DNA from: Marivita sp.
GTDB lineage: Bacteria; Pseudomonadota; Alphaproteobacteria; Rhodobacterales; Rhodobacteraceae
Assembly: GCF_020055675.1 (NCBI RefSeq)
Contig: NZ_JAIPUS010000017.1
Span: 1 to 62,721, forward strand
Direction: 5' to 3'
Length of the DNA: 62,721 bases
Part shown: positions 502-32,821 of the stretch, piece after piece
Position numbering within the stretch: position 1 is the stretch's first letter
Layout of the letters: each line of letters begins with the position of its first letter
The notes under the pieces: model-generated
Seen by the model: only the letters and a program-made list of their open reading frames with translations
The model's database searches: none
Told to the model about the DNA's origin: nothing
Position numbers and translations under genes: made by a program

Positions 502-547
502 TGCTGTCAGCCATTGCGCAAACAACAGGTTCGGGATGCCTCCGGCG

Positions 548-569
548 GGAGTTTATCCGGCAAGATGAA
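548..569 (-). repeat. Dispersed intergenic box, copy A
   Basis: On the minus strand this reads TTCATCTTGCCGGATAAA then CTCC. The CCGG inside the box (557-560) can pair with a second CCGG at 542-545. This copy is followed on its own strand by CTCC-CGCC-GGAG, the same tail as copy E. It lies 46 bases after the acyl-CoA dehydrogenase stop codon. Confidence 0.7.
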
Positions 570-734
570 GGAGCGCGGCAAGCTCCACCCCGCCGGTCGG
601 CCTCTTTACCACGCGGTGTCAGGCACTGTCGGCGGGGCTTCACCTTGCACATGGCTCAGCTCTCCAGCCTGCCATGCACCGCGTTGATACGCCAATTAAC
701 CTTAACGGAGGATGAAGAAGAAACGGGCTCCAGC

Positions 735-786
735 TTCATCTTGCCCGATAAACTCCACGGGGGGGGTGGGGGTGTGAAACCCCCAC
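735..786 (+). repeat. Dispersed intergenic box, copy B, with hairpin
   Basis: The box is 735-756 (TTCATCTTGCCCGATAAA then CTCC). Here the internal arm is CCCG (744-747) and the downstream arm is CGGG (758-761), the complementary change relative to copies A, C and E. A GC-rich hairpin follows at 766-786, with an 8-base stem GTGGGGGT pairing to ACCCCCAC-type sequence and a 5-base loop. There is no T-run after the stem, so a classical terminator is not claimed. Confidence 0.7.
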
Positions 787-824
787 ATCGTCCCTCGACA
801 TTTTCACAACAGGAGACTTCGCCC

Positions 825-1463
825 ATGACCATGCACCTCTATTGCTTCGGCGAAAGCGGACATTCCTACAAAGCCGCGCTCGCGCTTGAACTTGGGGGGA
901 TGGATTGGACCCCCTTGAAAGTCGATTTCTTTGGGGGCGAGACGCGCAGTTCGGACTATCGTGCCAAGGTGAACGAAATGGGCGAAGCACCGGTGCTGGT
1001 GGATGGCGACGTCACGCTGTCACAATCAGGTGTGATCCAGACCTACCTGTCTGACACATACGGCAAGTACGGTGGCAAGGACGCGATGGAGCGGCTCGAG
1101 ATCCTGCGCTGGATTCTCTGGGACAACCAGAAATTCAGCGGCACCTCCGGCGCCTTGCGCTTCCTCATGAACTTCCTGCCCGAAGACAAACGACCAGCCG
1201 AAGTGATTGGCTTCATGCAAGGCCGGATGAAATCGGCCTACGGGGTACTTGACGCGCATCTGGCGGGCCGTGACTGGATTGTCGGGGATGCTGTCACCAA
1301 CGCAGACTTAAGCTGCTGCGGTTATCTCTATTATCCAGAACCCTTCGGATTTGACCGTGCCGACTGGCCCAATATCGACCGGTGGATGTCCAACATCCAA
1401 GCCCTGCCCGGCTGGAAACACCCTTATGACCTGATGCCCGGATCCCCTTCGGACCGGGCCTGA
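825..1463 (+). CDS. Glutathione S-transferase family protein
   Basis: This 212-residue protein has GST architecture: an N-terminal thioredoxin-like half (MTMHLYCFGESGHSYKAALA; NEMGEAPVLVDGD, with the conserved cis-Pro; LSQSGVIQTYLSDTYG, with the Ser that contacts the gamma-glutamyl group) and an all-helical C-terminal half (WIVGDAVTNADLSCCGYLYY, matching the N-capping box). The frame is open much further upstream, but AGGAG at 811-815 sits nine bases before ATG 825 and homology begins there. The stop codon is 13 bases before the thiolase start, so it is probably translated from the beta-oxidation mRNA. Its substrate is unknown. Scavenging of reactive acyl-CoA breakdown products would fit the context but is inference. 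Confidence 0.88.
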   Translation: MTMHLYCFGESGHSYKAALALELGGMDWTPLKVDFFGGETRSSDYRAKVNEMGEAPVLVDGDVTLSQSGVIQTYLSDTYGKYGGKDAMERLEILRWILWDNQKFSGTSGALRFLMNFLPEDKRPAEVIGFMQGRMKSAYGVLDAHLAGRDWIVGDAVTNADLSCCGYLYYPEPFGFDRADWPNIDRWMSNIQALPGWKHPYDLMPGSPSDRA

Positions 1464-1476
1464 GACGGAGAGCCGA

Positions 1477-2688
1477 ATGACTGACGTATATATCTACGAC
1501 GCCCTGCGTACCCCGCGGGGCAAGGGCCGCAAGGACGGCAGCCTGCACGAGGTGACGAGTCTGCGCCTGTCCGCACAGGTGCTGAATGCCGTCAGGGAGC
1601 GCAACGGGCTGGAGGGTCACGCGGTCGAGGATGTGATCTGGGGCAATGTCACCCAGGTGGGCGAACAGGGCGGCTGCCTTGCGCGCACCGCCGTGCTGGC
1701 CTCGGACCTGGACCAGTCGATCCCCGGCCTTGCGATCAACCGGTTCTGTGCCTCCGGCATGGAGGCCGTCAACCTTGCCGCGAACCAGCTGCGCGGTGGT
1801 GCTGGAGACGGCTATATCGCCGGTGGCGTGGAAATGATGGGCCGGGTGGCCATGGGCAGCGACGGGGCGGCGATCGCGGTTGATCCGAGCGTCGCGATGG
1901 AGAGCTATTTCGTCCCGCAGGGCATTTCGGCCGACATCATCGCCACCGAGTACGGATTTTCCCGCGAAGACGCCGACAGCCTTGCCGTGGAAAGCCAGCG
2001 CCGGGCCGCGGCGGCATGGGAAGATCAGCGCTTTGCCAAATCGATTATTCCCGTGCGCGACCAGAACGGCCTGACGATCCTGGATCGGGACGAACACATG
2101 CGCCCCGGCACCGACCTGCCGTCGCTTGGCGCGCTCGATCCCTCGTTCAAGCAGATGGGCGAGGCGATGCCGGGCTTCGATGCGGTGGCGCTGATGAAAT
2201 ACCCGCATCTGGAGCGGATCAACCACATCCACCACGCGGGCAATTCTTCGGGCATCGTCGATGGGGCCGCGGGTGTGCTGATCGGCAACAAGGCATTTGG
2301 CGAAAAATGGGGCCTGAAGCCCCGCGCCCGGATCAAGGCCACCGCCAAGATCGGCACCGATCCGACCATCATGCTGACCGGGCCGGTGCCGGTGACGGAA
2401 AAGATCCTTGCCGACAGCGGCATGAGCATCAGTGACATCGACCTGTTCGAGGTGAACGAGGCCTTCGCAAGCGTGGTCCTGCGTTTCATGCAGGCGTTCG
2501 ATGTCGATGCGGACCGGGTCAACGTCAACGGCGGCGCCATTGCGATGGGGCATCCGCTGGGGGCGACCGGCGCGATCATCATCGGCACGCTGCTTGACGA
2601 GCTGGAGCGCAGCGGCAAGGGCACCGGGCTTGCCACGCTGTGCATCGCGTCGGGCATGGGTGCGGCAACCATCATCGAGCGCGTGTGA
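1477..2688 (+). CDS. fadA: Acetyl-CoA C-acyltransferase (thiolase)
   Basis: The 403-residue protein is a thiolase that cleaves 3-ketoacyl-CoA to acetyl-CoA and a shortened acyl-CoA, the last step of beta-oxidation. The nucleophilic cysteine is in NRFCASGMEAV near residue 89, the catalytic His in GGAIAMGHPLGATGA, and the second Cys in LCIASGMGAA near the C-terminus. The N-terminus VYIYDALRTPRGKGRKDGSL is characteristic. The start at 1477 has GGAG at 1467-1470. The gene is followed within 20 bases by the hydratase/dehydrogenase gene, giving a two-subunit trifunctional-type pair. The symbol follows that pairing; an acetoacetyl-CoA thiolase is less likely. Confidence 0.93.
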   Translation: MTDVYIYDALRTPRGKGRKDGSLHEVTSLRLSAQVLNAVRERNGLEGHAVEDVIWGNVTQVGEQGGCLARTAVLASDLDQSIPGLAINRFCASGMEAVNLAANQLRGGAGDGYIAGGVEMMGRVAMGSDGAAIAVDPSVAMESYFVPQGISADIIATEYGFSREDADSLAVESQRRAAAAWEDQRFAKSIIPVRDQNGLTILDRDEHMRPGTDLPSLGALDPSFKQMGEAMPGFDAVALMKYPHLERINHIHHAGNSSGIVDGAAGVLIGNKAFGEKWGLKPRARIKATAKIGTDPTIMLTGPVPVTEKILADSGMSISDIDLFEVNEAFASVVLRFMQAFDVDADRVNVNGGAIAMGHPLGATGAIIIGTLLDELERSGKGTGLATLCIASGMGAATIIERV

Positions 2689-2705
2689 TCGGAAGGATTA
2701 TGACC

Positions 2706-4892
2706 ATGACAGACTTCACAATGACCACCGACGCCGATGGCATCGCGACGCTCACCTGGGACGTTCCGGAAAAATCGATGAACGTGCTGAGCTTTGAGGG
2801 GCTCGAAACCCTCAGCGACCTGATGGAGCACGCGCTGGCGGATGACGCCGTCACGGGCATCATCATCACCAGCGGCAAGCCGGATTTCGCGGCGGGCATG
2901 GACCTCAACGTGCTGGCCACGCTGAAAGAGGCCGGGGCCGAGGCGGTGTTCGACGGCATCATGAAAATGCACGGCGTGCTGCGCAAGATCGAACGCGCGG
3001 GCATGGATGCCAAGACCAACAAGGGCGGCAAGCCGGTGGCGGCGGTACTTCCGGGCACGGCGCTTGGCATCGGGCTGGAGATTCCGCTGGCCTGTCACCG
3101 CATCTTTGCCGCCGACAATCCCAAGGCCAAGATCGGCCTGCCGGAGATCATGGTCGGCATCTTCCCCGGTGCGGGCGGCACAACCCGCGTGGCGCGCAAG
3201 ATGGGGGCGATGGCGGCCTCGCCCTTCCTGCTGGAAGGCAGGCTGTCCGATCCGGCCAAAGCCAAGGCCGCGGGCCTGATCGACGAGGTCGCCGATGATC
3301 CGATGGCGGCGGCGCGCGACTGGGTGCTGAACGCCAAGGATGCCGATCTGATCAAGCCGTGGGATGCCAAGGGCTACAAGATGCCCGGCGGCGCGCCCTA
3401 TCATCCGGCGGGGTTCATGACATTCGTCGGTGCCTCGGCAATGGTCAACGGCAAGACCAAGGGTGTCTACCCAGCGGCCAAGGCGCTGCTGAGCGCGGTC
3501 TATGAAGGTGCGCTTGTGCCGTTTGACACCGCGCTCAAGATCGAGGCGCGCTGGTTCACCAACATCATCATGAACCCGTCTTCCGGCGCGATGATCCGGT
3601 CGCTGTTTGTCAACAAGCAGGCGCTTGAAAAAGGCGCAGTGCGGCCCGACGGGATCGACGATCAGAAGGTTCGCAAAGTGGGCGTTCTTGGTGCCGGCAT
3701 GATGGGCGCGGGCATCGCGCTGGTGTCGGCGCAGGCCGGGATCGAGGTGGTACTTCTGGACCGGGATCAGGCAGCGGCGGACAAGGGCAAAGCCTATTCT
3801 GCCGATTACGCGGCCAAGGGGGTATCACGCAAGAAGATCACGCAGGACAAGGCCGATGCGATGCTGGCGCGGATCAAGGCGACAAACGATTACGCTGTCT
3901 TGGCAGGCTGTGACATGGTCGTCGAAGCGGTGTTCGAAGACCCCAAGATCAAGGCCGAGGTCACGGCACAGGTCGAGAAGGTTGTGCGCGAAGATTGCAT
4001 CTTTGCCACCAACACCTCGACCCTGCCGATCACCGATCTGGCCAAGGCCAGCCAGCGCCCGGAACAGTTCATCGGCATTCACTTCTTCAGCCCGGTAGAA
4101 AAGATGATGCTGGTCGAGATCATCAAGGGCAAGGCAACCGGCGACCGTGCCGTCGCCAAAGCCCTCGATTTCGTGCGCCAGATCAAGAAGACGCCGATTG
4201 TCGTCAATGACGCGCGGTTCTTCTATGCCAATCGCTGCATCATCCCCTATATCAACGAAGGCATCCGGATGGTGAAGGAAGGCGTTGCCCCCGCCCTGAT
4301 CGAGAACGCCGCCAAGATGGTCGGCATGCCGCTGGGTCCGTTGCAGCTTGTCGATGAAACCTCGATTGATCTGGGGGCCAAGATCGCCCGTGCCACCAAG
4401 GCGGCAATGGGCGATGCCTATCCGGATGGCGAGGTGGACGAGGTGATCTTCTGGATGGAGGATCAGGGCCGTCTGGGCCGCAAGGCCAAGGCGGGGTTCT
4501 ACGACTATGACGACAAGGGCAAGCGGCAGGGACTGTCGGACGTTGTGATGCGACGATACCCGCAATCGGAAAACCAGCCCGATCTGATCGACGTCCAGCA
4601 CAGGCTTTTGTTCACACAATCGCTCGAAGCGGTGCGCGCCCTGGAAGACGGGGTCCTGATGGACATCCGCGAAGGCGATGTCGGCGCAATCCTTGGCTGG
4701 GGCTTTGCGCCGTGGTCAGGCGGCCCGCTGTCATGGCTCGACATGCTGGGCGCGGAATATGCCGCGCATCGCTGCGATGAGCTGGTCGCGGCCCATGGTG
4801 ACCGTTTTGCCTGCCCCGACCTGCTGCGCGAGATGGCGGCGAAAGGCCAGAGCTTCTATGGTCGGTTCGCACCAGCCGCGTCTGCGGCCTGA
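2706..4892 (+). CDS. fadB: 3-hydroxyacyl-CoA dehydrogenase / enoyl-CoA hydratase (FadB/FadJ type)
   Basis: This 728-residue bifunctional enzyme catalyses hydration of enoyl-CoA and NAD-dependent oxidation of 3-hydroxyacyl-CoA. The N-terminal crotonase domain shows DFAAGMDLN (oxyanion-hole region) and two glutamates in LGIGLEIPLACH and GLPEIMVGIFPGAGGTTR. From about residue 325 an NAD-binding fold starts with GVLGAGMMGAGIALVSAQAG. IGIHFFSPVEKM carries the catalytic His, and two C-terminal 3HCDH helical domains follow. Two in-frame ATGs exist, at 2700 and 2706. GGAAGG at 2691-2696 is nine bases from the second, which is preferred. Together with the thiolase it forms the core of the beta-oxidation complex. 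Confidence 0.94.
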   Translation: MTDFTMTTDADGIATLTWDVPEKSMNVLSFEGLETLSDLMEHALADDAVTGIIITSGKPDFAAGMDLNVLATLKEAGAEAVFDGIMKMHGVLRKIERAGMDAKTNKGGKPVAAVLPGTALGIGLEIPLACHRIFAADNPKAKIGLPEIMVGIFPGAGGTTRVARKMGAMAASPFLLEGRLSDPAKAKAAGLIDEVADDPMAAARDWVLNAKDADLIKPWDAKGYKMPGGAPYHPAGFMTFVGASAMVNGKTKGVYPAAKALLSAVYEGALVPFDTALKIEARWFTNIIMNPSSGAMIRSLFVNKQALEKGAVRPDGIDDQKVRKVGVLGAGMMGAGIALVSAQAGIEVVLLDRDQAAADKGKAYSADYAAKGVSRKKITQDKADAMLARIKATNDYAVLAGCDMVVEAVFEDPKIKAEVTAQVEKVVREDCIFATNTSTLPITDLAKASQRPEQFIGIHFFSPVEKMMLVEIIKGKATGDRAVAKALDFVRQIKKTPIVVNDARFFYANRCIIPYINEGIRMVKEGVAPALIENAAKMVGMPLGPLQLVDETSIDLGAKIARATKAAMGDAYPDGEVDEVIFWMEDQGRLGRKAKAGFYDYDDKGKRQGLSDVVMRRYPQSENQPDLIDVQHRLLFTQSLEAVRALEDGVLMDIREGDVGAILGWGFAPWSGGPLSWLDMLGAEYAAHRCDELVAAHGDRFACPDLLREMAAKGQSFYGRFAPAASAA

Positions 4893-5182
4893 ACACCGCG
4901 CAGTCCGGCGGGACAGAGCGCTTGCCAGACATTCGGTGCGCCCCCGGCAAGGTCCGGGGCGCAGCCGTCGCGCCAGCTTGGGCCCCCTGCTCTGCCCGAG
5001 GCGCGGCAAAACGGTCGATCCGGCCGATCCGGGGCCGTCGTGCACCAAGCATCCGCACTGCGACCCAACGGGCTTGGCGCGCATCCCGCGGCTTTGGTCC
5101 ATTGCCGCATGGCAGCAATACGCGCCGGGTCTGCCGGGTCCGGACCTAGAGAGCGGGCAGAGATCACCTGCGCGCCGACACG

Positions 5183-5833
5183 TCACTCACCGAACCGATA
5201 TCCAAATTGCGCGATGTCTCGGGCGCACATATCGGCCACGATCTGCGCGGTTCGGTCGGTGTAGGCCCGGCGGTAATCCTTCGGCCGGGCCGAGGAATTG
5301 GCGTGCGGCACGTCAAGCGCAAAGCCCAGGTGCCGCTCCAGCGGTGCCAGATCCTCTGGCAATGCCTCAAGCCGGATGTAGGCTGACGCCCGGTTGATGC
5401 CCGTTGCGTCGGTCACGTAACTGGCGGCAGGCGAGGCATGCATCGCGCCATATGTGCCGGGGTGCTGCACGAAATCCGCAAAGCTCAGCGCCTTGGCCAA
5501 CCTCACAGCCGGATGGTCAAAACTCTGTGTGCGCAGCCAGTGATAATAGCTGACCAACCGGTCCCAAGGATTGCGCACCAGGGTGAACACGAACATCTGT
5601 TCCAGCTTTCCAGGCGGCAGAACCCCGTCGATATCCGCCAGCGTACTGTGTTTCCATAGCCGCCCCTGCGCGGCAAGCTTCCTGACCCGCCCCTTGCGCC
5701 GGATCGCCTTGGGCGTGTCGCCGATCAGGATGTCGTCGCGATGCGCGCGCGCCTCCAGCGCGAGGGCCAAGGACGTCCCGCCGGTCTTGGGGATGTGTAC
5801 GAAGATGAAATTCCGTCCGGGCGAGATGATCAT
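5183..5833 (-). CDS. Sulfotransferase family 2 domain protein
   Basis: The 216-residue protein resembles PAPS-dependent sulfotransferases. FVHIPKTGGTSLA near residues 11-23 is the 5'-phosphosulfate loop, and FTLVRNPWDRLVSYYHW is the 3'-phosphate-binding element. The frame is open to 5935, but homology starts at MIISPGRNFIF, so the ATG at 5833 is chosen; neither start has a clear ribosome site. In the Rhodobacterales such proteins are often orphan genes thought to act on glycans or other surface polymers. No polysaccharide gene is nearby, so the acceptor is unknown. The 290 bases between it and the upstream beta-oxidation gene show no gene. Confidence 0.8.
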   Translation of the reverse strand: MIISPGRNFIFVHIPKTGGTSLALALEARAHRDDILIGDTPKAIRRKGRVRKLAAQGRLWKHSTLADIDGVLPPGKLEQMFVFTLVRNPWDRLVSYYHWLRTQSFDHPAVRLAKALSFADFVQHPGTYGAMHASPAASYVTDATGINRASAYIRLEALPEDLAPLERHLGFALDVPHANSSARPKDYRRAYTDRTAQIVADMCARDIAQFGYRFGE

Positions 5834-5984
5834 GCGCCAGAGGTGCCACCGGGCCGGTGCCAAGGCAAGGATTTGCTTTTGCCAAAGCGAGATCGCTGCG
5901 CCATGTCCACTTCTCGTGCCGGCGATCTGGTGCATTGTCCGGGAAGAGTGCCGGGAACGAGCCGGACGCGACCGTTCGCCGGGG

Positions 5985-6290
5985 TCACTCGAGTCCAGAT
6001 ATTTCGTAATCCCGAGGAATGCCTGCCGTTGCCGTCCACCATGGTGAAGCTCGCGTTCGTTGCTGGTGAAATTCGAAGGCCTCTTTGTCGAAGAAGCATT
6101 CCTCCACGTGCCAGATCAGAGGGTTATCCGACTGAACGACAGTGAAAGAAATGCAGCCGGGTTCGGCTGTCGTGAGGCGGATATGCTCGGGAAGATGAGT
6201 TTGCAAGATCTCGGCATCGCCCACCGATCCGCAAATTAGTCGTCCCATCAGACGCACGTACCCGGCATTCGAAGTCATCTTGTCAGCCAT
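5985..6290 (-). CDS. Antibiotic biosynthesis monooxygenase (ABM) domain protein
   Basis: The predicted 101-residue protein has the small ferredoxin-like ABM fold: an initial strand YVRLMGRLICG, a helix with HLPEHIRLTTAEPGCISF, then a strand pair around WHVEECFFDKEAFEFHQQR. ABM proteins include quinol monooxygenases and heme-degrading enzymes, but many have no known substrate. The ATG at 6290 fits the domain boundary; an upstream start at 6368 would add residues with no domain match. It is a single gene read away from the 6502 gene, sharing a divergent promoter region. Function beyond the domain cannot be assigned. Confidence 0.65.
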   Translation of the reverse strand: MADKMTSNAGYVRLMGRLICGSVGDAEILQTHLPEHIRLTTAEPGCISFTVVQSDNPLIWHVEECFFDKEAFEFHQQRTRASPWWTATAGIPRDYEISGLE

Positions 6291-6501
6291 TTGAAGACAT
6301 TTTTCGAAGTGTAGGTTGCTTGATGGCGGGATGGCAAGCGTCGGCAATGGTCCGCAAAGCCGGCACACATCCGTTTCAGGATTTCAAAGAGACCCGCCAG
6401 ACCCGAGGCAGGGCGCGCCTCGGCGCGCGCGCTTTGCTGCATTGCGCGACATCCCGTGCGGGTGTACTCTTTTGGCCAATCAATGAGGCAGAGCAGCCCG
6501 C

Positions 6502-7527
6502 ATGACCGCTTTGAAGGAATTTCAACGGCTCGAGGCCGAAGCTGTATGGCGTGCGACGCCCACAGACCAGCGCAAGGATGTGATCGTGTCGTTGGGAGAT
6601 GCCTCCTTGACGATCCTGGATCTGCGGGAAAACGTGCTGGCACATTGGTCGGTCGCGGCGGTGGTGCGGGCCAACAAGGGTCAGCGCCCCGCGATCTACC
6701 ATCCCGATGGCGATCCCGGCGAAACGCTCGAATTCGGCGAAGACGGCGCACAGATGATCGACGCCATCGAGACAATCCGCGCCGCCATCGAGAGGAGCCG
6801 CGCCAAGCCGGGCAAGCTGCGCCTCTGGATCACCGGGACAATCGCGGCCGCGATTGTGGCCGGGATCCTGTTCTGGCTCCCGGATGCGCTGTTGCGCCAC
6901 ACCGTGAAGGTGGTGCCGGCTGTCAAACGGGTCGAGATCGGCAATGCGCTTCTGGCGCGGGTCACGCGCATCTCGGGGCAGCCCTGCATGACACGCGACG
7001 CGCGCGAGCCTCTCAGTCGGCTGGCCTCGCGCGTGCTTGGACCGGCGCAGCGGGGATCGCTCGTGGTGCTGCCGGGCGGCGTGGTGCAGACGGCGCATTT
7101 GCCGGGGGGGCGCATCCTGCTGAACCGATCCCTGATCGAGGACCCGGAAGACCCCGAGGTGCCGGCCGGATATATCCTGACCGAACGCCTGCGCTCTCAA
7201 AGCCAGGACCCGCTCGAGAAAATGTTGATCCAGACCGGTCTTTGGTCGAGCCTGCGCCTGTTGACCACCGGAGAGATGTCCACGGACGATCTGGACCGCT
7301 ACAGCGAACACCTGTTGGCCCAACCCGCCGCGCCGCTTCCTGTGGAGACGATGCTTTCCGCCTTTGCCGCGGCCGAGCTGCGCAGCACGCCATATGCCTA
7401 TTCCGTTGATATCACGGGCGAAAGCACCCTGCCTCTCATCGAAGCCGATCCAATGTCCGGAAGATCACCGCGCCCTGTGCTGAGCGATGCGGACTGGCTC
7501 CGCCTTCAGGGCATCTGCGGCGCCTGA
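6502..7527 (+). CDS. Membrane-anchored protein resembling a degenerate M48 peptidase
   Basis: The 341-residue protein has one clear transmembrane segment (about residues 109-127). Its N-terminal part (about 28-90) looks beta-rich. The C-terminal part is likely outside the membrane and carries TAHLPGGRILLNRSLIEDP at about 198-215. That matches the M48 stretch preceding the zinc helix (A..LPGG.I.....L), but the expected HExxH is replaced by GYILTER at 223-229. If the relationship is right, the protein cannot bind zinc in the usual way and would be a pseudo-peptidase. The stop codon abuts the stop of the convergent gene with no base between. The M48 link is inference; otherwise it is a conserved-looking hypothetical. 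Confidence 0.6.
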   Translation: MTALKEFQRLEAEAVWRATPTDQRKDVIVSLGDASLTILDLRENVLAHWSVAAVVRANKGQRPAIYHPDGDPGETLEFGEDGAQMIDAIETIRAAIERSRAKPGKLRLWITGTIAAAIVAGILFWLPDALLRHTVKVVPAVKRVEIGNALLARVTRISGQPCMTRDAREPLSRLASRVLGPAQRGSLVVLPGGVVQTAHLPGGRILLNRSLIEDPEDPEVPAGYILTERLRSQSQDPLEKMLIQTGLWSSLRLLTTGEMSTDDLDRYSEHLLAQPAAPLPVETMLSAFAAAELRSTPYAYSVDITGESTLPLIEADPMSGRSPRPVLSDADWLRLQGICGA

Positions 7528-8181: not shown

Positions 8182-8309
8182 GTCTCTGTCCCCACAGGTC
8201 AGCGCCGAACCTGCCTGTCCGAAAATGCTGTGTAAAGGTCTATTTGGCGGCCTTAGGTATCAAACGCATCAAGCTACGGCGGGATGTGGAAGCAAGCCAT
8301 CGGGACTTG

Positions 8310-8579
8310 CTGCACGCGGGTTGGAATGTTGAGCGCGTCAACCACCCCGAAATCTACAGCGACCACGGCAAGCACACCAACATGGTTGAAAGCTAGGTCT
8401 CACACCTGCGCCGCATGGTGATGGGTCAGCACCACCACGTTAGCCCGCAATACCTTCACCAGGACGCAAACCACGCCGCATGGATGGAAGGAAACCGCCG
8501 CACCGACAACGGCACTCTGGCACACACGCTGGCAAGCAACGCCATAGGTTCACTGGTCAGCCGGACTTCGAACGTGTAG
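8310..8579 (+). pseudogene. IS1595-family (ISXO2-like) transposase remnant
   Basis: Only the C-terminal end of a transposase is recognisable. Reading frame 8310-8579 gives VNHPEIYSDHGKHTNMVES, then a TAG stop at 8394-8396, then LRRMVMGQHHHVSPQYLHQ and NHAAWMEGNRRTDNGTLA before TAG at 8577-8579. The H-T-x-x-x-E-S and G-x-H-x-x-V-S-x-x-Y-L pattern is that of ISXO2-like DDE transposases. The N-terminal and catalytic parts are missing upstream and one internal stop breaks the rest. I saw no terminal inverted repeats or target duplication. The family call rests on recall of motif order, not on an alignment. Confidence 0.6.
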
Positions 8580-8610
8580 TGGCAGCGGGCGGCGTAACGC
8601 CGAGCTATTG

Positions 8611-20117: not shown

Positions 20118-20127
20118 GCAGGGGTCC

Positions 20128-20201
20128 TTCATCTTGCCGGAAAAACTCCGGGGGGTGCGGGGGGCTGGCCCCCCGCCGGTCGGACGGGCCCCGCCCGTCC
20201 G
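20128..20201 (+). repeat. Dispersed intergenic box, copy C, with two hairpins between dppA and dppB
   Basis: The box is 20128-20149, with CCGG at 20137-20140 able to pair with CCGG at 20148-20151. Two perfect GC-rich stems follow: 20157-20164 with 20169-20176 (8 bp, 4-base loop) and 20181-20188 with 20194-20201 (8 bp, 5-base loop). In the minus-strand dpp mRNA these lie right after the dppA stop codon. They are placed to stabilise the binding-protein message or reduce read-through into dppB. On that strand the box also supplies the AAGGA used by dppB. Confidence 0.75.
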
Positions 20202-20205
20202 AGGC

Positions 20206-23411: not shown

Positions 23412-23430
23412 CAAGTCTTCGCAAACCCCG

Positions 23431-26400: not shown

Positions 26401-26475
26401 ACCGCCAAGCAGGGCCGCAAGCATGATCAGCCACGTGAGGATCGGGCGATCAATGGAGGCTTTTGCAATATTCAT
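23431..26475 (-). CDS. RND-family efflux transporter, inner-membrane pump
   Basis: The 1014-residue protein is an AcrB-like RND pump. It begins MNIAKASIDRPILTWLIMLA with TM1, followed by a porter loop (VVVTEYPGASAAQVAREVSE) and a central helix block (RISLGALIIAMGMLVDNAIV, carrying the acidic residue of the proton relay). The second half repeats the plan, ending VAAPVFYYAFFMHSAAPSRQ. It starts ten bases after the adaptor gene. No outer-membrane TolC-type gene or TetR gene is adjacent, so an outer channel must come from elsewhere. Substrate class is undetermined, though the sequence is nearer the multidrug (HAE1) than the heavy-metal class. Confidence 0.92.
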   Translation of the reverse strand: MNIAKASIDRPILTWLIMLAALLGGIWGFFTLGRLEDPAFTIKTAVVVTEYPGASAAQVAREVSEPLESEIQKMSEMKEVRSVNRPGQSRITVDMKDQYDGEELPEIWTKLRNRVSSVRLPAGVGTPFVNEGFGDVYGIYYAVTAPGFSDAEINNLATFLRRELLTVDGVADVSLSGVPNEVIYVEPDLALTTNLNVPPSAIQGALATANSVVDGGSIQDEDGRTLIQGPDGYDTVQEIAGLTVGVGGELLNLFDFSEVRRAREETPDMLIRHNRVEAFTVGVAGIGTENIVDVGKRADAKLDELAPQIPVGVELQPVYQQHVVVEEASNAFLVNLAMSVSIVVVVLAVFMGWRAAIVVGVTLLLTVVGTLFFMSVFSIEMERISLGALIIAMGMLVDNAIVVAEGMQIAMRRGKDSRAAADEAASKTQIPLLGATVIGIMAFAGIGLSPDATGEFLFSLFAVIGISLLLSWVLALTATPLLGHYFFKRASGDAEDAYGGVFFRLYAGTLRAALRVWWLVIAALVAITVVCFMLFGQIKQQFFPDSNTPLFFVHYKLDQGASIQETSGDIGVLEDWLAGQEDVVSATAFVGQGADRFMLTYQAEDPNPSYGHIIVRTDTIEEIPPLISDLEAFAARAVPQGEFRAKRLAFGPGGGDPIQARFSGSDPDMLRDLADEAMARLTEASDNIVTPRIDWREQELILKPVYATDRAQEAGITRDDITSILRFATTGIDAGVYREGDRQIPIVLRAKPEDNLALTDHMVYSQNAQSFVPLEQVTDGLTFEAQNTLLKRRDRLLTITVGADIVKGLTAAQVQAEVTQTIEDMELPSGYKMEWGGELESSSQAQESLGRQLPMSLIIMIVISVLLFNALRQPLIIWLLVPMSVNGVSLALLGTGFPFTFTALLGLLSLSGMLIKNGIVLVEEIDLVRAERPGQTLKESIVEASTSRLRPVILAAATTILGMTPLIWDAFFRSMAVTIMGGLAFASILTLVAAPVFYYAFFMHSAAPSRQEAA

Positions 26476-26485
26476 GGCGCAGCAC

Positions 26486-27517
26486 TCAGTTCGGGAATCC
26501 GGTGAACCGTCTGACGCGGTCCCCGTCTGCCAATTGGCTCGCCCCGCTGGCGACGATTTCCTCGCCCGGCTCCAGCCCCGCGATCACGCGCACCTCACCC
26601 CGGATCGTCGGCTCGACGGTCACGCGCCTGCGCGCGACAGTGCCTTCTTCTGCACCAACGGGTGTGAATACCAACACCGTGGGTGCGCCATCATTCATCG
26701 TGCCGACCGCCGATGCCGGGATGCGAATATCCTGCGTGCCGGCGTCCAGTGTCGCATAGACCGTCACCGACGATCCCGGCAGGATCCTCTTGCCCTCGGG
26801 TGGCTCCATGCCCAGGGTGATCTGGTAGGTCTGGCCAACCTGCGAGGTCTCCGCGTTGAATTCGCGCGGCGTCACCGGGTAGCGCTCGTCACCGGTGGGA
26901 AACTTTGCCCAAAGGTCGACCCCCGGATCGGTGCCCGCTCTTTGAAACAGGATTTCCGGCACTTCGATGTCAATGCGCAGCTCCGACATGTTGTGCAACC
27001 GCGCCACCGGCGTTCCGGCCGATATGGTCGAAAAGTTGGCCACGTTGCGCGACGCCACAAGCGCGTCGAACGGCGCCAGCAAGGTCGCGTTCTTCAATTC
27101 GCGTTCCGCATTCCGCACCGAGATTTCCGCCAATTCAAGCGAGGTCTGGGCATCATCCACTGAAACCTGGCTCACCGTGCTTCCTTGCAGTTTCTGCAGT
27201 CGCTCCAGCGTCCGCTCCGCCTGGTTTCGCTGCACCCGCGCCTGATCCAGCGCCAGCTGAAAGGGTTCAAGATCAAGCTGCGCAATCACGGAATCCTCGT
27301 TGATCCGGTTGCCTTCAATGAGGGGCAACTTGACGATTTGCCCTCCCACCTGGAAGGCCAGGTCAACCGTTTCCTTGGCGACGACATGCCCGAAAAATTG
27401 CCGTGTCATGGCACCATCGACCGCCGTCACATTGATGATCTTGGCCAGCCGCATGTCCTGCGCCGCCCCCATCGTCGGGCCGACCAGCAGCAAGAGGCAA
27501 AACAATAGGCGGCGCAT
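26486..27517 (-). CDS. RND efflux periplasmic adaptor subunit
   Basis: The 343-residue membrane-fusion protein has a signal peptide (MRRLLFCLLLLVGPTMGAAQ). A split lipoyl domain follows (TVDLAFQVGGQIVKLPLIEG and RELKNATLLAPFDALVASR) flanking a short coiled-coil hairpin (LDQARVQRNQAERTLERLQK), then beta-barrel and membrane-proximal parts. GGGAG precedes ATG 27517; the longer start at 27595 is rejected because the added stretch lacks signal-peptide character. It is the first gene of the two-gene operon. A TetR-like palindrome sits about 80-100 bases upstream. Confidence 0.9.
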   Translation of the reverse strand: MRRLLFCLLLLVGPTMGAAQDMRLAKIINVTAVDGAMTRQFFGHVVAKETVDLAFQVGGQIVKLPLIEGNRINEDSVIAQLDLEPFQLALDQARVQRNQAERTLERLQKLQGSTVSQVSVDDAQTSLELAEISVRNAERELKNATLLAPFDALVASRNVANFSTISAGTPVARLHNMSELRIDIEVPEILFQRAGTDPGVDLWAKFPTGDERYPVTPREFNAETSQVGQTYQITLGMEPPEGKRILPGSSVTVYATLDAGTQDIRIPASAVGTMNDGAPTVLVFTPVGAEEGTVARRRVTVEPTIRGEVRVIAGLEPGEEIVASGASQLADGDRVRRFTGFPN

Positions 27518-27597
27518 GGCGAAACTCCCGGTCTCTGTCACATTGGCAGGGAAACGACCTTTGTCACGGGACGTTCCACGCCTGATGCGCGTCAACT

Positions 27598-27616
27598 AAA
27601 CCGAACAGTTCAGTTT
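27598..27616. promoter_or_regulatory. TetR-type operator candidate upstream of the RND operon
   Basis: AAACCGAAC-A-GTTCAGTTT is a 19-base inverted repeat with one mismatched pair of nine. AAAC-GAAC palindromes of this form are common targets of TetR-family repressors of RND pumps. It lies 81 bases before the adaptor start codon. The only TetR gene in the window is betI, more than 17 kb away, so the cognate repressor is probably encoded elsewhere. Confidence 0.6.
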
Positions 27617-27696
27617 GACACGCCTCAATTGCACCGAAGACGTGAAAACCCGCTGTGCGCCTGTGCACAGTTGCAATATCGCAGCGCGATGAAGGA

Positions 27697-29193
27697 TCAG
27701 TAAAGCCAGAACAGCGTGATCGCCGGGAACATCACCAGCAGGATCACCCGCAGGATATCCGAGGTCACGAACCAGATCACTGCCTTGTAGGTCTCCATCA
27801 TCGGCGTGTCGCGATCCATCGAATTGATGATGAACAAATTCATCCCCACCGGCGGCGTGATCAGCCCGACCTCGACCACGATCAGGACAAGGATACCAAA
27901 CCAGATTGCCACCCATTCCGCTTCGATCCGGTTTGCCATTCCCTGTGTCACACGAATATCAAGCGCCTGCATCTGCTCGCGGGTCAGCTCTGCACCGGTC
28001 GCCAGCGCCGCCTCGATCGAGGCCAGCATCTCTTGCCCCATGCCGTTGACCGCCCCGGCCGCCAGCGCCTCGCGCGCGGCATCCGCCTGCATCGCCGCCA
28101 GATCGACAAAGCCGAAATCCATCACCGATATCACCGGGAAGAAGATCGGGATGGTCAAAAGGATCATCGACAGGCTGTCCATCAAACACCCGAAGACAAG
28201 GTAGAAGAGCAGGATCAAGGACAGAACCATGAACGGGCTCAACCCCATGTCCACAACCCAGTTCGACAGTTCCTGCGGCACCTGGCTCAACGCGAGAAAG
28301 CCATTGTAAAAAGACGCCCCCAGCACGATGAAAAAGATCATCGCGGTGCTCACCGCCGTCTGGATGATGCTCTGCTTGAACACCGCCCAGGACAGGCTGC
28401 CCGACACCAGCGCGATCAGCCCGGTGCCCGCCGCGCCAACCGCCGCGCCTTCGGTCGGCGTGAACCAGCCAAGGTAAATCCCCCCGACGACCAGCGCAAA
28501 GACCACGAGCACCGGCCACACGTCAAGCAAGGCCCGCCAACGCTCTGCATAGGGCACCGGCGCGCGCATTCCCGCCGCCTCCGGATGCCGCCGCACATAG
28601 ATCGAGATCGCGATCATGTATCCGAGCGCAGCCAACAGCCCCGGGACAAAGGCCGCAAGGAACAGCTTGGCGATATTCTGCTCGGTCAGGATCGCGTAGA
28701 TGACCAGGATCACCGATGGCGGGATCAAAATACCCAGGGTGCCCCCCGCGGCCAGGGTCGCCGTCGAAAAACCGCCGGAATACCCGTTGCGGCGCAACTC
28801 GGGCAGCGCCACGCGGCTCATCGTGGCGGCAGTGGCCAGCGACGACCCGCAGATTGCGCCAAAGCCGGCGCATGCCCCGACCGCCGCCATGGCAACACCC
28901 CCCTTGCGGTGGCCAAGCCAGGACTCGGCCGCCTTGAACAAGGCCGATGACAGGCCGGACAGCGTGGCAAACTGGCCCATCAACAAGAACATCGGGATGA
29001 TCGACAGCGAATAGCTTGAAAAGGTCGAATAGGTTTCCGACTTGAGCTTGGCCAAAACCACGTCCGGGCTGCCCAGCGACAGCCAAAGCCCGCCGATCCC
29101 GCACAGCAACATGGCCAGCCCGATCGGGGCACGCAGGAATATCAGCACCAGAAGCACCGGGAAAGACCAGAGGCCCAGCTCCAGAGGGCTCAT
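27697..29193 (-). CDS. dctM: TRAP transporter large permease (DctM)
   Basis: The 498-residue protein is the 12-helix-type permease of a tripartite ATP-independent transporter, driving solute uptake by ion symport. Typical pieces are MFLLMGQFATLSGLSSALFK, AVGACAGFGAICGSSLATAA, AAGGTLGILIPPSVILVIYA and VVEVGLITPPVGMNLFIINS. It is about 60-70 residues longer than common DctM proteins because of a hydrophilic insertion before the last helices (roughly residues 358-423; it includes MQALDIRVTQGMANRIEAEW). ATG 29193 overlaps the dctQ stop by four bases; upstream sequence in frame is not homologous. Confidence 0.92.
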   Translation of the reverse strand: MSPLELGLWSFPVLLVLIFLRAPIGLAMLLCGIGGLWLSLGSPDVVLAKLKSETYSTFSSYSLSIIPMFLLMGQFATLSGLSSALFKAAESWLGHRKGGVAMAAVGACAGFGAICGSSLATAATMSRVALPELRRNGYSGGFSTATLAAGGTLGILIPPSVILVIYAILTEQNIAKLFLAAFVPGLLAALGYMIAISIYVRRHPEAAGMRAPVPYAERWRALLDVWPVLVVFALVVGGIYLGWFTPTEGAAVGAAGTGLIALVSGSLSWAVFKQSIIQTAVSTAMIFFIVLGASFYNGFLALSQVPQELSNWVVDMGLSPFMVLSLILLFYLVFGCLMDSLSMILLTIPIFFPVISVMDFGFVDLAAMQADAAREALAAGAVNGMGQEMLASIEAALATGAELTREQMQALDIRVTQGMANRIEAEWVAIWFGILVLIVVEVGLITPPVGMNLFIINSMDRDTPMMETYKAVIWFVTSDILRVILLVMFPAITLFWLY

Positions 29194-29774
29194 GCTCCCT
29201 CCGCCCCGCTGGCGGGCAGGATATCGCGCCCCGTCGCGGCCCTCAGCACGCGACCAACGGCGCAATATACCGCCGTCAGAGAGGCCACGACGGCTGCGAC
29301 AAGGCTTGCTGCATAGGCCCACCAGATCGGGAATTGCAGCAGGAACGTTGTCTCGCCATTGCTGATCTTGTCCATCATGCCCACGCCCAGCCGCCAGGTG
29401 ATCACCACGATGGCTGCCGTCAGCACCACCTCCCAGAATGCCACTAGCCAGCGGTTCAGCCGCTCCGACAGGCCGGAGGTGAAGATATCCACCGTCGCAT
29501 GGCCCGCATAAAGCTGGCAGACCGGCAGGAAGGCGAAGATCGCAAAGGCAATCCCGGCTTCGACCACCTCGAAATCACCGGTGACCGGCCCGACGCCGGT
29601 GCTGATCAGCACATCACCCGCCCGCGCGGAAATCGCCGCAAGCCAGTTGGAATGGCCGATGCTGTTGAGCCCGCGGCCCAGGACAGACACGCAGGTCAGC
29701 AAAACAAGGAGGCTCAAGACACCGCCCCCCAGCACCGCCATGGATCTTGCAAGGCGTTCAATCGCCGTGGTCAT
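29190..29774 (-). CDS. dctQ: TRAP transporter small permease (DctQ)
   Basis: The 194-residue protein has four predicted membrane helices (around VLSLLVLLTCVSVLGRGLN, AFAIFAFLPVCQLYAGHATV, WEVVLTAAIVVITWRLGVGM and AYAASLVAAVVASLTAVYCA), the DctQ layout. VCQLYAGHATVDIF resembles the conserved family segment. It overlaps dctM by four bases and follows dctP by 72 bases. It forms the membrane complex with DctM. Confidence 0.9.
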   Translation of the reverse strand: MTTAIERLARSMAVLGGGVLSLLVLLTCVSVLGRGLNSIGHSNWLAAISARAGDVLISTGVGPVTGDFEVVEAGIAFAIFAFLPVCQLYAGHATVDIFTSGLSERLNRWLVAFWEVVLTAAIVVITWRLGVGMMDKISNGETTFLLQFPIWWAYAASLVAAVVASLTAVYCAVGRVLRAATGRDILPASGAEGA

Positions 29775-29846
29775 GCCGCCCGCCCCTTGTCGTCCTGCGT
29801 GCCACCCGCGCCATCCGGAGCCGGCCCCCGGGTCGCGCGGCGCTTC

Positions 29847-30881
29847 CTACTGCGTGCTGTGCTTTTCAAGCAGCGCGTTTGCCCGCTCGACAAGCGCAGC
29901 ACCGTCCAGACCCTTTTCATCCATCTCCGCGATCCAGTCATCCCTGGTCACTGCGGCGGCTTCCTGCCATCCGGCGGCCTCCTGGGCACTGATGGTGATG
30001 ATCCTGTTGCCCGCATCCAGCGCTGCGTCGCGGGCCGGGCCGTCATCGGCCTGCATCTGCGCACCCGCCATGCGGCTGAACTCCGCACCGGACTGCGAGT
30101 CAATCACGTCTTTCAGGTCATCCGGCAAGGCCTCGTAAGCATCCTTGTTCATCGCAAGGATGAAACTGGTGGTATAAAGCGCGTTCCCCTCGAACTCGGT
30201 GTGGTTCTGCACCAGCTCCGCCACCTTGAGCGCGCCGGTCACCTCCCAAGGGATCACGGCGCCATCGACAACCCCCTTGGACAGCGACTCGGGGATAGCG
30301 GGTACCGGCATACCCACGGTGGTGGCCCCGAGATCCGACAACAGCTTGGTTGTCGCCCGTGTCGGCGCGCGCAGCTTCATCCCGTTCAGATCCGATGGCT
30401 CCAACACGGGATCGGTCGAATGGATCACGCCGGGACCATGCACCCAAACGCCCAGCACTTTGAAATCGGCAAAGTCCTGATCCATCATCCGTTCCTCGGC
30501 CAGGTCCCAAAAGGCTGCGGACATATCCCCGGCATCCGACATCAGGAAAGGCAGCTCGAACACCTCGGCGCGCGGGAAGCGACCCGGCGTATAGCCGGCA
30601 ACGGTCCAGATGATATCGGCCACACCGTCAATCGCCTGGTCAATTAACTGCGGCGGCGTACCGCCCAGCTGCATCGACGGGAAATGCTGGATCTCGATCC
30701 GCCCATCAGACGCCGCCATGACCCGTTCGGCCCAGGGCACCAACACGTTCTTGGGCACATTGGCCTGCGCTGGCAGGAACTGGTGCATGCGCAAAGTCAC
30801 ATCCTGGGCAAATGCCCCGGTGGCAAGCATCGCCGCCACGGCGGTCGTGCCGGCCAGCTTCATGAAACCAATTTTTTTCAT
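29847..30881 (-). CDS. dctP: TRAP transporter solute-binding protein (DctP)
   Basis: The 344-residue periplasmic protein has a signal peptide (MKKIGFMKLAGTTAVAAMLA, cleavage near AFAQ) and the DctP fold. The conserved central arginine that salt-bridges a carboxylate ligand is likely the one in NGMKLRAPTRATTKLLSDLG. Other family stretches are HQFLPAQANVPKNVLVPWAE and ALYTTSFILAMNKDAYEALP. A G-rich site precedes ATG 30881. It heads the dctP-dctQ-dctM operon. The substrate is probably an organic acid, but nothing in the sequence names it. Confidence 0.92.
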   Translation of the reverse strand: MKKIGFMKLAGTTAVAAMLATGAFAQDVTLRMHQFLPAQANVPKNVLVPWAERVMAASDGRIEIQHFPSMQLGGTPPQLIDQAIDGVADIIWTVAGYTPGRFPRAEVFELPFLMSDAGDMSAAFWDLAEERMMDQDFADFKVLGVWVHGPGVIHSTDPVLEPSDLNGMKLRAPTRATTKLLSDLGATTVGMPVPAIPESLSKGVVDGAVIPWEVTGALKVAELVQNHTEFEGNALYTTSFILAMNKDAYEALPDDLKDVIDSQSGAEFSRMAGAQMQADDGPARDAALDAGNRIITISAQEAAGWQEAAAVTRDDWIAEMDEKGLDGAALVERANALLEKHSTQ

Positions 30882-31434
30882 TGCCAAATCCCCCCGTTTT
30901 TCTGCGTCCATAAACACACGTCGCGGATGAAGAATCCATGAAAAATCTGCCCCGGCCCGATAATGCGCTTGGCCGTCATGAAACCCACATTCGCCGCCCG
31001 CGGCAAGCTGACCTGCCAAGCAGCACCGACGCGGCAACACGGCAGACATCGATCACCCGCCGCCGCTCCAGCCCGACGGCAAAGGTGATCGCCCCCGTCC
31101 TCTCGCGTCACGTCACGGGGCGGCACCGGCCTGTCCAGCCCGGCCCGATGATGCTCGTTCGCGTGATGACACGGTCCGCAGCTTCATCTTGCCCGAAAAA
31201 CTCCGGGGGAGTCGCCCGGGGGGCGACGGGGGCAGCGCCCCCGAACCACAGCCCGGGGACAGCGCCCTCCACACCCTGCCCGGGATGCTCCCGCACGATC
31301 TCCGGCAGCACCCGGAGCCGCCAGTTGGCGCGCCCGTCCGATATCGCATTACGCCCTGCATCTGACCTGACCGCGCTGGACAATCCACGCACCACCAGCA
31401 AGTGTCAGCGCGAACACGAACAAGGAGACACCAC
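30882..31434. other. Intergenic region between dctP and ridA holding repeat copy D
   Basis: No gene is supported in these 553 bases. The left part should hold the minus-strand dctP promoter. The right part contains repeat copy D (31183-31204) with two adjacent hairpins and, near 31421, the ridA ribosome site. The segment around 30990-31180 is GC-rich with no recognisable signal. Confidence 0.5.
31183..31242 (+). repeat. Dispersed intergenic box, copy D, with two hairpins
   Basis: The box is 31183-31204. Its inner arm is CCCG (31192-31195) and the downstream arm is CGGG (31204-31207), as in copy B. Two stems follow directly: GTCGCCC 31211-31217 with GGGCGAC 31221-31227, and GGGGGC 31228-31233 with GCCCCC 31237-31242. 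It lies between divergent transcription units. Confidence 0.72.
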
Positions 31435-31776
31435 ATGATCGAGCGATTGGAAACCGGGCAACGGATGAGCAAGATCGTCAAACACAATGGCACCGTCTAT
31501 CTGTGCGGTCAGGTCGGCGCAGGCGACAGCGTGACCGAACAGACGCAGGATTGCCTCGCCCGCGTCGATGCGCTGCTCGAAAAGGCCGGATCGTCGCGCG
31601 CGCAGATCCTGCAAGCCATCATCTGGGTCGCCGACATGGCGGATTTCGCCGAGATGAACGCGGTCTGGGATACCTGGGTCCCCGAAGGTCATGCCCCCGC
31701 CCGCGCCTGCGGCGAGGCCAAACTGGCCCGCCCCGAGCTCAAGGTCGAAGTGATAGTGACCGCCGCCTACGAATAA
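31435..31776 (+). CDS. RidA/YjgF-family protein
   Basis: The 113-residue protein belongs to the RidA superfamily. Members hydrolyse reactive enamine/imine intermediates (the archetype deaminates 2-aminoacrylate) or act in amine catabolism. Visible features are [20 protein letters not shown], a helix [20 protein letters not shown], the family region [20 protein letters not shown] carrying the conserved Arg, and the C-terminal strand [17 protein letters not shown] near 31422 precedes ATG 31435. Its end overlaps the convergent reductase gene by 10 bases. Whether it is true RidA or a Rid subfamily cannot be settled by eye. Confidence 0.86.
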
Positions 31777-32744
31777 AGCCCGGCGGTCCGCCCACGAAGC
31801 TGCACCAGCGCCAGCACCGTGTCGATCGTCGGTGTTGGCACACCCACCACGCGGCCCAGCTCCTGCACCGATCCGACCAGCGCGTCGATCTCCATCGGAC
31901 GGCCCTGGTCCAGATCCTGCAACATCGACGTACGATGCGCGCCAACAGCCGCCCCGCCGTCGATGCGCCGCTCCACGTCAATCGGGAATTTCACCCCAAG
32001 CGCCTCGGCGATCTCCTGCGCCTCGAGCATCATGCCCCTGGCCACGCCCCGCGTGCCCGCGTCGGTGCACAGCACATCCAGCGTCGCATGGGTCAGCGCC
32101 GAGATCGGGTTGAACGACAGGTTGCCCCAAAGCTTCACCCAGATCTCGTCCCGCAACCGTGGCCGCACCGGCGCCTTCAGCCCCGCCGAGGACAGCGCCT
32201 TCGACAGCGCCGTGGCGCGCTCCGATTTCGACCCGTCCGGTTCGCCCAACGAAAAGCGGTTGCCCTCGATATGCTTGACCACGCCGGGACGGGTCACCTC
32301 TGCGGCCGGATAGACAACACATCCCAGCACCCGGTCCGGCCCGAAGCCGTCCCATTGCGCATTGCCCGGGTCCACAGAGGCAAGCCGCGTGCCCTCATGC
32401 GCGCCGCCGATCTTGTGGAAATACCACCACGGCACCCCGTTCACACCGGAGACGATCGTGGTGTTCGGCCCGATCAGTGGCTGCATCTTGTCGACAATGG
32501 GCGGCACCGAATGCGCCTTCAAGGTCACGATCACATAATCCTGCACGCCCAGCGCCGCCGGATCTTCAGAGGCATTAACCTTAACGGCCGCCTCGTTCTC
32601 TTCCTCGATCAGCGTCAGCCCATTCGCCTGCATCGCCGCCAGGTGCGGCCCGCGCGCCACAAGGCTCACATCCGCCCCCGCCTGCGCCAGCTTTACTCCC
32701 ATGTAGCCGCCAATGGCGCCCGCTCCGAATACGCAAATCTTCAT
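31767..32744 (-). CDS. 2-dehydropantoate 2-reductase family (ketopantoate reductase-like)
   Basis: The 325-residue NADP-dependent oxidoreductase begins [20 protein letters not shown], a Rossmann glycine motif. The C-terminal helical domain carries the catalytic lysine in [19 protein letters not shown], the ApbA_C signature. PanE reduces ketopantoate in pantothenate synthesis, but these families are broad and no other pan gene is nearby. Another 2-keto acid may therefore be the substrate. The frame is open to an ATG at 32795 inside repeat copy E; ATG 32744, with GGGGAGAG just before it and at the start of homology, is used. It follows the acyl-CoA ligase gene on the same strand. Confidence 0.85.
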
Positions 32745-32790
32745 CGCTCTCCCCGAAACGATCCGCTGGTCTATGGCGAACCGCTCCTCC

Positions 32791-32821
32791 TTCATCTTGC
32801 CGGAAAAAACTCCCGCCGGAG
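32791..32821 (+). repeat. Dispersed intergenic box, copy E; possible weak terminator on the minus strand
   Basis: The box is 32791-32813 with one extra A. CCGG at 32800-32803 can pair with CCGG at 32816-32819. Read on the minus strand it gives CTCC-GGCG-GGAG followed by six T, a short stem plus T-run, located 42 bases after the ligase stop codon. The stem is only four base pairs, so terminator activity is tentative. Confidence 0.6.

What the first reader, a model, noticed from the sequence alone, without database searches (positions are those of the whole stretch)
540..32821. Five-copy dispersed intergenic element with covarying arms
The 22-base box TTCATCTTGCC[C/G]GA[A/T]AAACTCC occurs at 548-569 (minus), 735-756, 20128-20149, 31183-31204 and 32791-32813 (plus; one extra A). 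All copies are between genes. Where the internal arm is CCGG (A, C, E) a CCGG lies downstream; where it is CCCG (B, D) the downstream arm is CGGG. That compensating change keeps a stem. Three copies (B, C, D) are followed by extra GC-rich hairpins; A and E share another tail (CTCC-CGCC-GGAG). This looks like a mobile or amplified structured RNA/DNA element rather than a plain terminator.
Basis: seen in the sequence. Interest (0 to 1): 0.7.

Follow-up and report, generated by a model that had tools for sequence, protein, structure and literature searches.

The report
RNA gene with dispersed matching sites
A short DNA sequence scattered at gene ends in marine bacteria is matched, in two separate parts, by a family of small folded RNAs that we could not find described, one of which is encoded between two of the copies; this suggests RNAs that recognise many places in their own genome.

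Summary
The five boxes are real and lie beside gene ends; the claimed CCGG/CGGG arm covariation is not supported. Read on the other strand the box is [L4]-linker-NNN-[D11], with L4 GGAG and D11 GCAAGATGAAG. The own genome has 17 intergenic copies of this dialect and 49 of sister dialects.

Boxes A and B bracket a structured RNA gene on the minus strand (window 684-548). In 43 aligned loci 96.5% of helix cells pair; covariation is 0.483 against 0.064-0.100 for slid versions. RNA segment P1a equals D11 except G for A at one position, and the loop of the first hairpin equals L4. Across genera both change together with the upstream box: D11 within 2 mismatches in 56 of 62 loci, L4 positions 2-4 in 51 of 55. 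Dispersed boxes in the genus carry such L4/D11 pairs. Rfam has no match at the RNA, and RAYT transposases show no association.

Best reading: small RNAs with a two-part code for dispersed sites, more likely in DNA than in mRNA. Trans action, effect and protein partner are inferred or unknown.

The parts
548..570 (+). Box A, GGAGTTTATCCGGCAAGATGAAG; its complement is the 3' tail of the minus-strand RNA (P1b, spacer, A-rich linker, CTCC)
734..756 (-). Box B, GGAGTTTATCGGGCAAGATGAAG, upstream of the RNA's presumed promoter
548..684 (-). Structured RNA gene (model R2 match, 93.1 bits)
649..677 (-). P3, the first hairpin of the RNA; its loop GGAG is at 662-665
638..648 (-). P1a, GCAAGGTGAAG: equals the D11 part of boxes A and B except G for A at position 6
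588..637 (-). P2 hairpin, arms 588-594 and 631-637
696..707 (.). Conserved TTAACCTTAACG between RNA and box B, CtrA-site-like (likeness recalled, not tested), perhaps part of the promoter
20127..20149 (-). Box C, solo, after the 20206-21783 gene and before the 19170-20132 gene, with GC hairpins at about 20150-20202
31182..31204 (-). Box D, solo, with GC-rich hairpins beside it
32790..32813 (-). Box E, solo, class I hairpin CCTCCGGCGGGAG; one base longer

Best explanation
The boxes are recognition sites of a family of small structured RNAs. Shown by comparison: the window encodes one such RNA on the minus strand (684-548). Its P3 loop (4 nt) and its P1a segment (11 nt) reproduce the two parts of the box, L4 and D11, and both covary with the boxes beside the RNA gene; dispersed boxes in the genus carry matching L4/D11 pairs. 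In cis the RNA's own 3' tail, the complement of box A, can pair with both segments (P1 helix plus loop-tail pseudoknot). Inferred: in trans the same two segments pair with one strand of box B and of the solo boxes, most likely within an RNA-protein complex on DNA, giving self-control at B and acting at transcript ends at the solo boxes, whose neighbouring hairpins end or protect transcripts. The protein is unknown. My odds: RNA and boxes form one coevolving system 0.9; action in trans 0.6; on DNA rather than mRNA 0.4.
For: RNA structure: 27 pairs, 96.5% of cells paired, covariation 0.483 vs 0.064-0.100 slid. P1a/P1b: at least 9 of 11 pairs in 49 of 53 loci, 27 different P1a, 536 of 539 cells vs shuffled mean 425, maximum 449. 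Loop-tail: all 4 pairs in 33 of 53 parsed loci vs shuffled mean 13.5, maximum 23. Upstream box: D11 within 2 mismatches of P1a in 56 of 62 loci, foreign P1a 170 of 1150; loop = L4 at positions 2-4 in 51 of 55, shuffled mean 19.6, maximum 30. L4 of dispersed boxes goes with D11. Dialect of dispersed boxes equals that of an RNA of the same genome in 7 of 9 genomes compared. Both boxes at the A/B locus shift dialect together. Of 4 box pairs predicted to hold an RNA, 3 do. For DNA: boxes lie in both orientations at gene ends, and five loci with no tail found keep the upstream match, where box and P1a have the same sense and cannot pair as RNA.
Against: No transcript data, no protein found. Six of 62 loci fail the upstream match (L336, L349, L353, L420, L421, L425; L353 is a script artefact, its box equals P1a exactly), and L362 passes without a box-like linker. 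Solo dialect differs from the RNAs found in G051 and G041. AACCAGAGAAG boxes have mixed L4 (GGGA 4 of 12). P1 and loop-tail pairing can be wholly internal to the RNA. At locus C, G006, G011 and G016 have unrelated hairpins in place of the box element.
Confidence: 0.5

Rival explanations
1. Trans-acting sRNA on mRNA: P1a and the P3 loop pair with boxes carried in mRNA 3' regions and alter stability or read-through; no DNA recognition.
For: Boxes lie at gene 3' ends; in the orientation stop-CTTCATCTTGC...CTCC the mRNA is the right strand (39 opp/opp and 33 convergent of 120). The cis fold shows that such pairing is possible.
Against: 44 of 120 lie in same/same context, where the mRNA has the sense of the guide; box B lies upstream of the RNA and is conserved there.
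Confidence: 0.25
2. RNA-guided mobile cassette: box B - RNA - box A is an element whose RNA recognises its own ends and target sites, and solo boxes are targets or leftovers.
For: Inverted boxes at both ends of the RNA gene; several RNA copies per genome with different dialects; at the A/B locus three species have a bare pair of another dialect; relatives on plasmids and viral contigs.
Against: No recombinase gene annotated in the stretches around the plasmid copies that have full gene tables (two others had none); the RNA stretch is held in 14 of 17 genus genomes; no clean empty site at loci A/B or C; no RAYT association.
Confidence: 0.15
3. Ordinary hairpin element: terminators or REP-like repeats at gene ends; the box is a by-product and the RNA only shares it because box A overlaps its 3' end.
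For: GC hairpins beside many solo boxes and the 3'-end position; unrelated hairpins replace the element at locus C in three species.
Against: Some boxes have no adjacent GC hairpin (L281). It does not predict L4/D11 coupling, the loop-L4 match, or a free spacer between constant parts in orthologues chosen without the box.
Confidence: 0.1

Closest known systems
IS110/IS621 bridge RNA (PMC11208160; passages seen)
   Same: A non-coding RNA with two short guide segments for one DNA site, and natural covariation between guide and site.
   Different: There the two target guides pair with opposite strands (9 and 4 bases are named in the passages) and the RNA lies in the non-coding end of an element with its recombinase; here both segments would pair with one strand across about 8 unpaired bases, and I saw no recombinase beside the RNA.
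TIGR-Tas (PMC12045711; abstract and outline seen)
   Same: Two-part guide RNA for DNA, in prokaryotes and viruses.
   Different: TIGR guides are 36-nt RNAs cut from arrays next to a Nop-domain protein; here a single ~135-nt folded RNA, no array, no protein seen beside it.
TldR RNA-guided transcription factors (PMC13418256; start of abstract in a listing only)
   Same: Would be RNA-guided control of transcription.
   Different: TldR is a TnpB-like protein (rest recalled); no such gene was looked for genome-wide here.
REP elements with RAYT (recalled)
   Same: Dispersed extragenic repeats with hairpins at gene 3' ends, single or in inverted pairs.
   Different: No RAYT association, and the conserved core is a non-palindromic two-part box matched by an RNA gene.
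Base-pairing regulatory sRNAs (recalled)
   Same: Small structured RNA with possible base-paired targets.
   Different: Tens of matching sites, two matched parts, both orientations, and a matching site upstream of its own gene.

Membership tests
REP elements with RAYT transposase | Dispersed, extragenic, near gene 3' ends | tested here: met
   4 of 135 copies inside called genes; 4 of 120 in divergent gaps vs 188 of 878 gap-orientations
REP elements with RAYT transposase | Association with a RAYT / Y1 transposase (PF01797) | tested here: not met
   2 of 27 box-rich and 1 of 27 genomes without hits of one box pattern
Intrinsic terminator | Hairpin followed by a U tract, always downstream of a gene on the same strand | tested here: not met
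   Upstream neighbour on the same strand in 77 of 120; 39 opp/opp; short T run only
Known Rfam RNA family | Match at the RNA above the family's gathering score | tested here: not met
   None at the RNA in the window or in 18 other loci
Conserved structured RNA | Compensatory changes exceeding shuffled and slid controls, and a strand set by G-U pairs | tested here: met
   strand (plus-strand view: P2 2 GT/TG vs 21 AC/CA, P3 1 vs 10)
Conserved structured RNA | A transcript exists | not testable with these tools
   No RNA data; -10-like bases 5' of P3 in Thiothrix and Cereibacter plasmids seen by eye only
IS110-type bridge RNA system | RNA lies in an element with its IS110 recombinase gene | tested here: inconclusive
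   None among annotated genes around four plasmid copies; chromosomal neighbours were not searched by family
IS110-type bridge RNA system | Two guides pairing with opposite strands of the target | tested here: not met
   Loop and P1a both have the sense of the same box strand
TIGR-Tas | Array of guides next to a Nop-domain protein | not tested
   No protein-family search was run on the neighbours
Base-pairing sRNA | Pairing with mRNA targets changes their expression | not testable with these tools
   Only sequence complementarity and covariation

The most novel reading that the evidence does not exclude
A natural, multi-copy RNA-guided DNA recognition system without a linked protein gene: each RNA paralogue carries a 4-nt loop guide and an 11-nt guide set to a site upstream of its own gene and to a private set of gene-end sites, with several such codes coexisting in one genome and rewriting guide and sites in step over evolution.
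Probability: 0.35. Interest if true: 0.95.

Novelty: categorically new. Interest (0 to 1): 0.85.

Why it matters
If the match is functional, a widespread group of bacteria uses small folded RNAs to address dozens of gene-end sites through a readable two-part code. Several codes coexist per genome, so swap tests are direct. It would add a kind of RNA-based genome addressing and point to an unknown partner protein. Even without trans action, it is a widespread, strongly covarying RNA family (97 of 149 sampled family genomes) with no Rfam model matching it here.

Tried and rejected
Plain terminator: orientation is mixed and D11 lies past the T run. RAYT/REP: no association. Start-codon reading (GGAG, then ATG in GATGAAG): the ATG frame runs a median of 30 codons to a stop, another frame 34, and the third opens with a stop. 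Plus-strand RNA (model R1) was my first reading; G-U counts turned it to minus. A long A-B stem: the spacers of A and B often differ by eye, not counted. Papers: 8 searches were answered; in the listings I saw no description of box or RNA; a listing shows at most the best 20, and subscription journals are mostly not held. The RepRanger paper (PMC12306157) was searched for six terms only: no Rhodobacter, Paracoccus or Sulfitobacter. Phage records: no match to a 35-nt P3 query. Of five viral contigs, L429 and L430 look like chance matches inside called genes; Deinococcus hit L426 had no R2 match at E up to 1.

Rows dropped: A5 holds 43 of 53 RNA loci; L344, L333, L358 and L353 had no usable P1 from the script, and L167, L328, L336, L341, L342 and L352 were not passed on (near-duplicate, long P2 or unusual P1). 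The 53 are the best of the hits, not all. P1b was located as best complement with a bonus for an A-rich linker, which favours pairing. In one search the tail was parsed in 53 of 56 loci; L322, L342 and L344 were parsed wrongly and count against pairing, and the script stopped with an error after the totals. In one search the matches of L419, L422, L423 and L424 had been seen by eye first. Many loci were fetched with patterns that fix GGAGT or TATTT, so constancy inside those is no evidence; others (chosen by a neighbouring protein; chosen by D11) are free of that. One search's class-wide pattern also misses the own dialect, so it says little about absence outside the family.
Full report
OBSERVATION. 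The five boxes exist as described. The window is contig 1 of a 3.6-Mb genome in 82 contigs. Two genomes of the window's genus have contigs of the same length as Marivita geojedonensis and M. hallyeonensis records (184576 and 776414 bases), so the window is probably a Marivita (inference). In the own genome 19 exact GGCAAGATGAAG were found (reversed control 1), 17 intergenic: 16 with GGAG, one with GAG and no GC hairpin. In the genus 15 of 17 genomes match a looser pattern (a few of those hits are not boxes). In the family 102 of 149 genomes match a still looser pattern, up to 171 times, with the reversed control at most 5 per genome; many of the genomes with few hits are at background. Genera differ in dialect: GAGTATTT-NNN-GCAAGATGAA, -ACAAGATGAA, -GAAAGATGAA and others.

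POSITION. With a home-made gene caller on 119 loci: 135 copies, 4 inside genes. Of 120 with both neighbours, 44 have both genes on the box strand, 39 both on the other, 33 lie between convergent genes and 4 in divergent gaps; gaps of 60 bp or more in these loci, both orientations counted, give 277/277/136/188. Other dialects (four genomes): 20/13/20/4 against 59/59/44/42. So boxes sit at gene 3' ends in either orientation. The stop codon of a same-strand gene is a median 59 bp before the box; an opposite downstream gene ends a median 17.5 bp after it.

THE A/B LOCUS. Orthologues fetched by the neighbouring protein (17 of 17 genus genomes) show a conserved stretch between A and B in 14; in G005, G009 and G012 only a close box pair of another dialect remains. 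In G004 and G010 both boxes differ from the window's in the same way. Within the same dialect the changes in A and B fall almost only in the spacer. RNAalifold on the 14 gave 9 of 30 pairs with compensatory changes. A covariance model (R1) matched 97 of 149 family genomes at E<=0.001 and four places in the own genome, three of them listed (E-values rough). G-U counts on 34 loci put the RNA on the minus strand: seen from plus, P2 has 2 GT/TG and 21 AC/CA, P3 1 and 10.

RNA ANATOMY. In 53 loci the RNA strand reads: box B; TTAAC-rich motif; P3 hairpin (CGGTACAGGC-[loop]-GCCGATGACCG type); P1a; P2; tail = complement of box A (P1b, spacer, AAATA-like linker, 4 nt). P1a and P1b pair at 9 or more of 11 positions in 49 of 53, with 27 different P1a; 536 of 539 cells pair against a shuffled mean of 425 and a maximum of 449 in 2000 shuffles. 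On 43 aligned sequences four helices have 96.5% of cells paired and covariation 0.483, against 0.064-0.100 when slid; P1 alone 99.8%, 7 of 11 pairs changed on both sides. The P3 loop pairs with the last four tail bases in full in 33 of 53 (shuffled mean 13.5, maximum 23). Model R2 scores the own-genome copies 93.1 (window), 104.9 (contig 8) and 91.9 bits (contig 62).

THE TWO-PART MATCH. The box is [L4]-linker-spacer-[D11]; the RNA carries L4 in the P3 loop and D11 as P1a, in the same order and sense. An upstream 11-mer, 73-121 nt before P1a, is within 2 mismatches of P1a in 56 of 62 loci (39 with exactly one); 46 of the 73 differences are A in the box and G in the RNA at position 6. P1a of other loci reach at most 1 mismatch in 15 and at most 2 in 170 of 1150 trials. 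The loop equals L4 at positions 2-4 in 51 of 55 parsed boxes (shuffled mean 19.6, maximum 30 in 5000), in 22 of 23 with a loop other than GGAG; at all four positions in only 20 of 55. Loci without a tail found by script or eye (L333, L358; plasmids L422 of Azospirillum and L424 of Thalassococcus; viral contig L419) keep the upstream match. Since box B and P1a have the same sense they cannot pair with each other as RNA; the simplest shared partner is the complementary DNA strand. That is my main reason to prefer DNA, and it is inference. The constant G.U (G.T) at one position would also keep the guide's own coding DNA from being a perfect site (speculation).

DISPERSED BOXES. In the 119 loci only L069, L130 and L146 hold an RNA above 60 bits; most boxes are solo or in close inverted pairs. 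A TATTT-based pattern finds 27-82 boxes of other dialects in each of the 17 genus genomes, 49 in the own (reversed control 0). L4, which that pattern does not fix, goes with D11: AAACAGAGAAG with GAGG in 10 of 11; AAAAGAAGAAG with TGCA 7 and GGCA 2 of 9; AAGAGAAGAAG TGCA 2, TGCG 2, GGCA 2, TGAG 1 of 7; AACCAGAGAAG mixed, GGGA 4, GAAG 3, GAGG 2, others 3 of 12 (boxes beside RNAs included). The own genome's RNAs on contigs 8 and 62 have loops GGCA and GGGA, and solo boxes with the same pair of parts exist (L407 GGCA/AAGAGAAGAAG, L417 GGGA/AACCAGAGAAG). The dialect of dispersed boxes equals that of an RNA in the same genome in G057, G140, G160, G147, G021, G120 and G126, and not in G051 and G041: 7 of the 9 genomes for which I held both, some with only two boxes read. 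Box pairs 120-190 bp apart in G003 and G002 were predicted to hold further RNAs: 3 of 4 do; in G140 such pairs show no P3 (L210-L214: R2 28.4 bits or less).

BREADTH. Relatives of the RNA occur on plasmids of Paracoccus, Thalassococcus, Cereibacter, Azospirillum and, among Gammaproteobacteria, Thiothrix (R2 34-91 bits for six), and on viral contigs L419, L427 and L428 (32-36 bits). Thiothrix and Cereibacter copies show no matching upstream box. A TGCTATAGT-like stretch lies just before P3 there (by eye), fitting an RNA start.

MECHANISM. Shown: a conserved structured RNA, and two-part covariation with boxes beside it and with dispersed boxes. Inferred: recognition in trans, its DNA level, and its effect. 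At locus C (translated as a permease-like gene after a gene I take for its binding protein; not searched) five of nine aligned species have the box element, G002 a divergent one, and G006, G011 and G016 unrelated hairpins, so hairpins there probably act on the transcript whatever the box does. Most likely the hairpin shapes the transcript end and the box is the address read by the RNA.

NOVELTY. No Rfam match at the RNA and no paper seen. Bridge RNAs and TIGR are nearest in logic, but their linked proteins were not seen beside this RNA.

Noticed in passing
L210-L214 (G140): Inverted box pairs with exactly 113 bp between starts occur four times in one genome (and one at 150 bp) without a P3 hairpin between them; their inner sequences differ.
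   Followed up: partly
window 755-790 (beside box B) and RNA loci of other genera: Box B often has its own hairpin type, GGGGGTTTCACACCCCC-CACCCCCGTGGAG, seen beside RNA genes and seldom beside solo boxes.
   Followed up: no
window 31050-31766: Long stretch around box D with only a weak gene call on either strand; may hold a decayed gene.
   Followed up: no
L425 2068-2146 (Cereibacter plasmid): Weak match to Rfam CcsR1 (27.5 bits, gathering 65.3), not at the RNA.
   Followed up: no
L420, L421, L425: On Thiothrix and Cereibacter plasmids the RNA lies near antirestriction, zincin-like metallopeptidase and DUF932 genes.
   Followed up: no
window 20133-20205: The gap between a binding-protein-like and a permease-like gene holds a hairpin in every one of nine aligned species, but of unrelated sequence in three.
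   Followed up: partly
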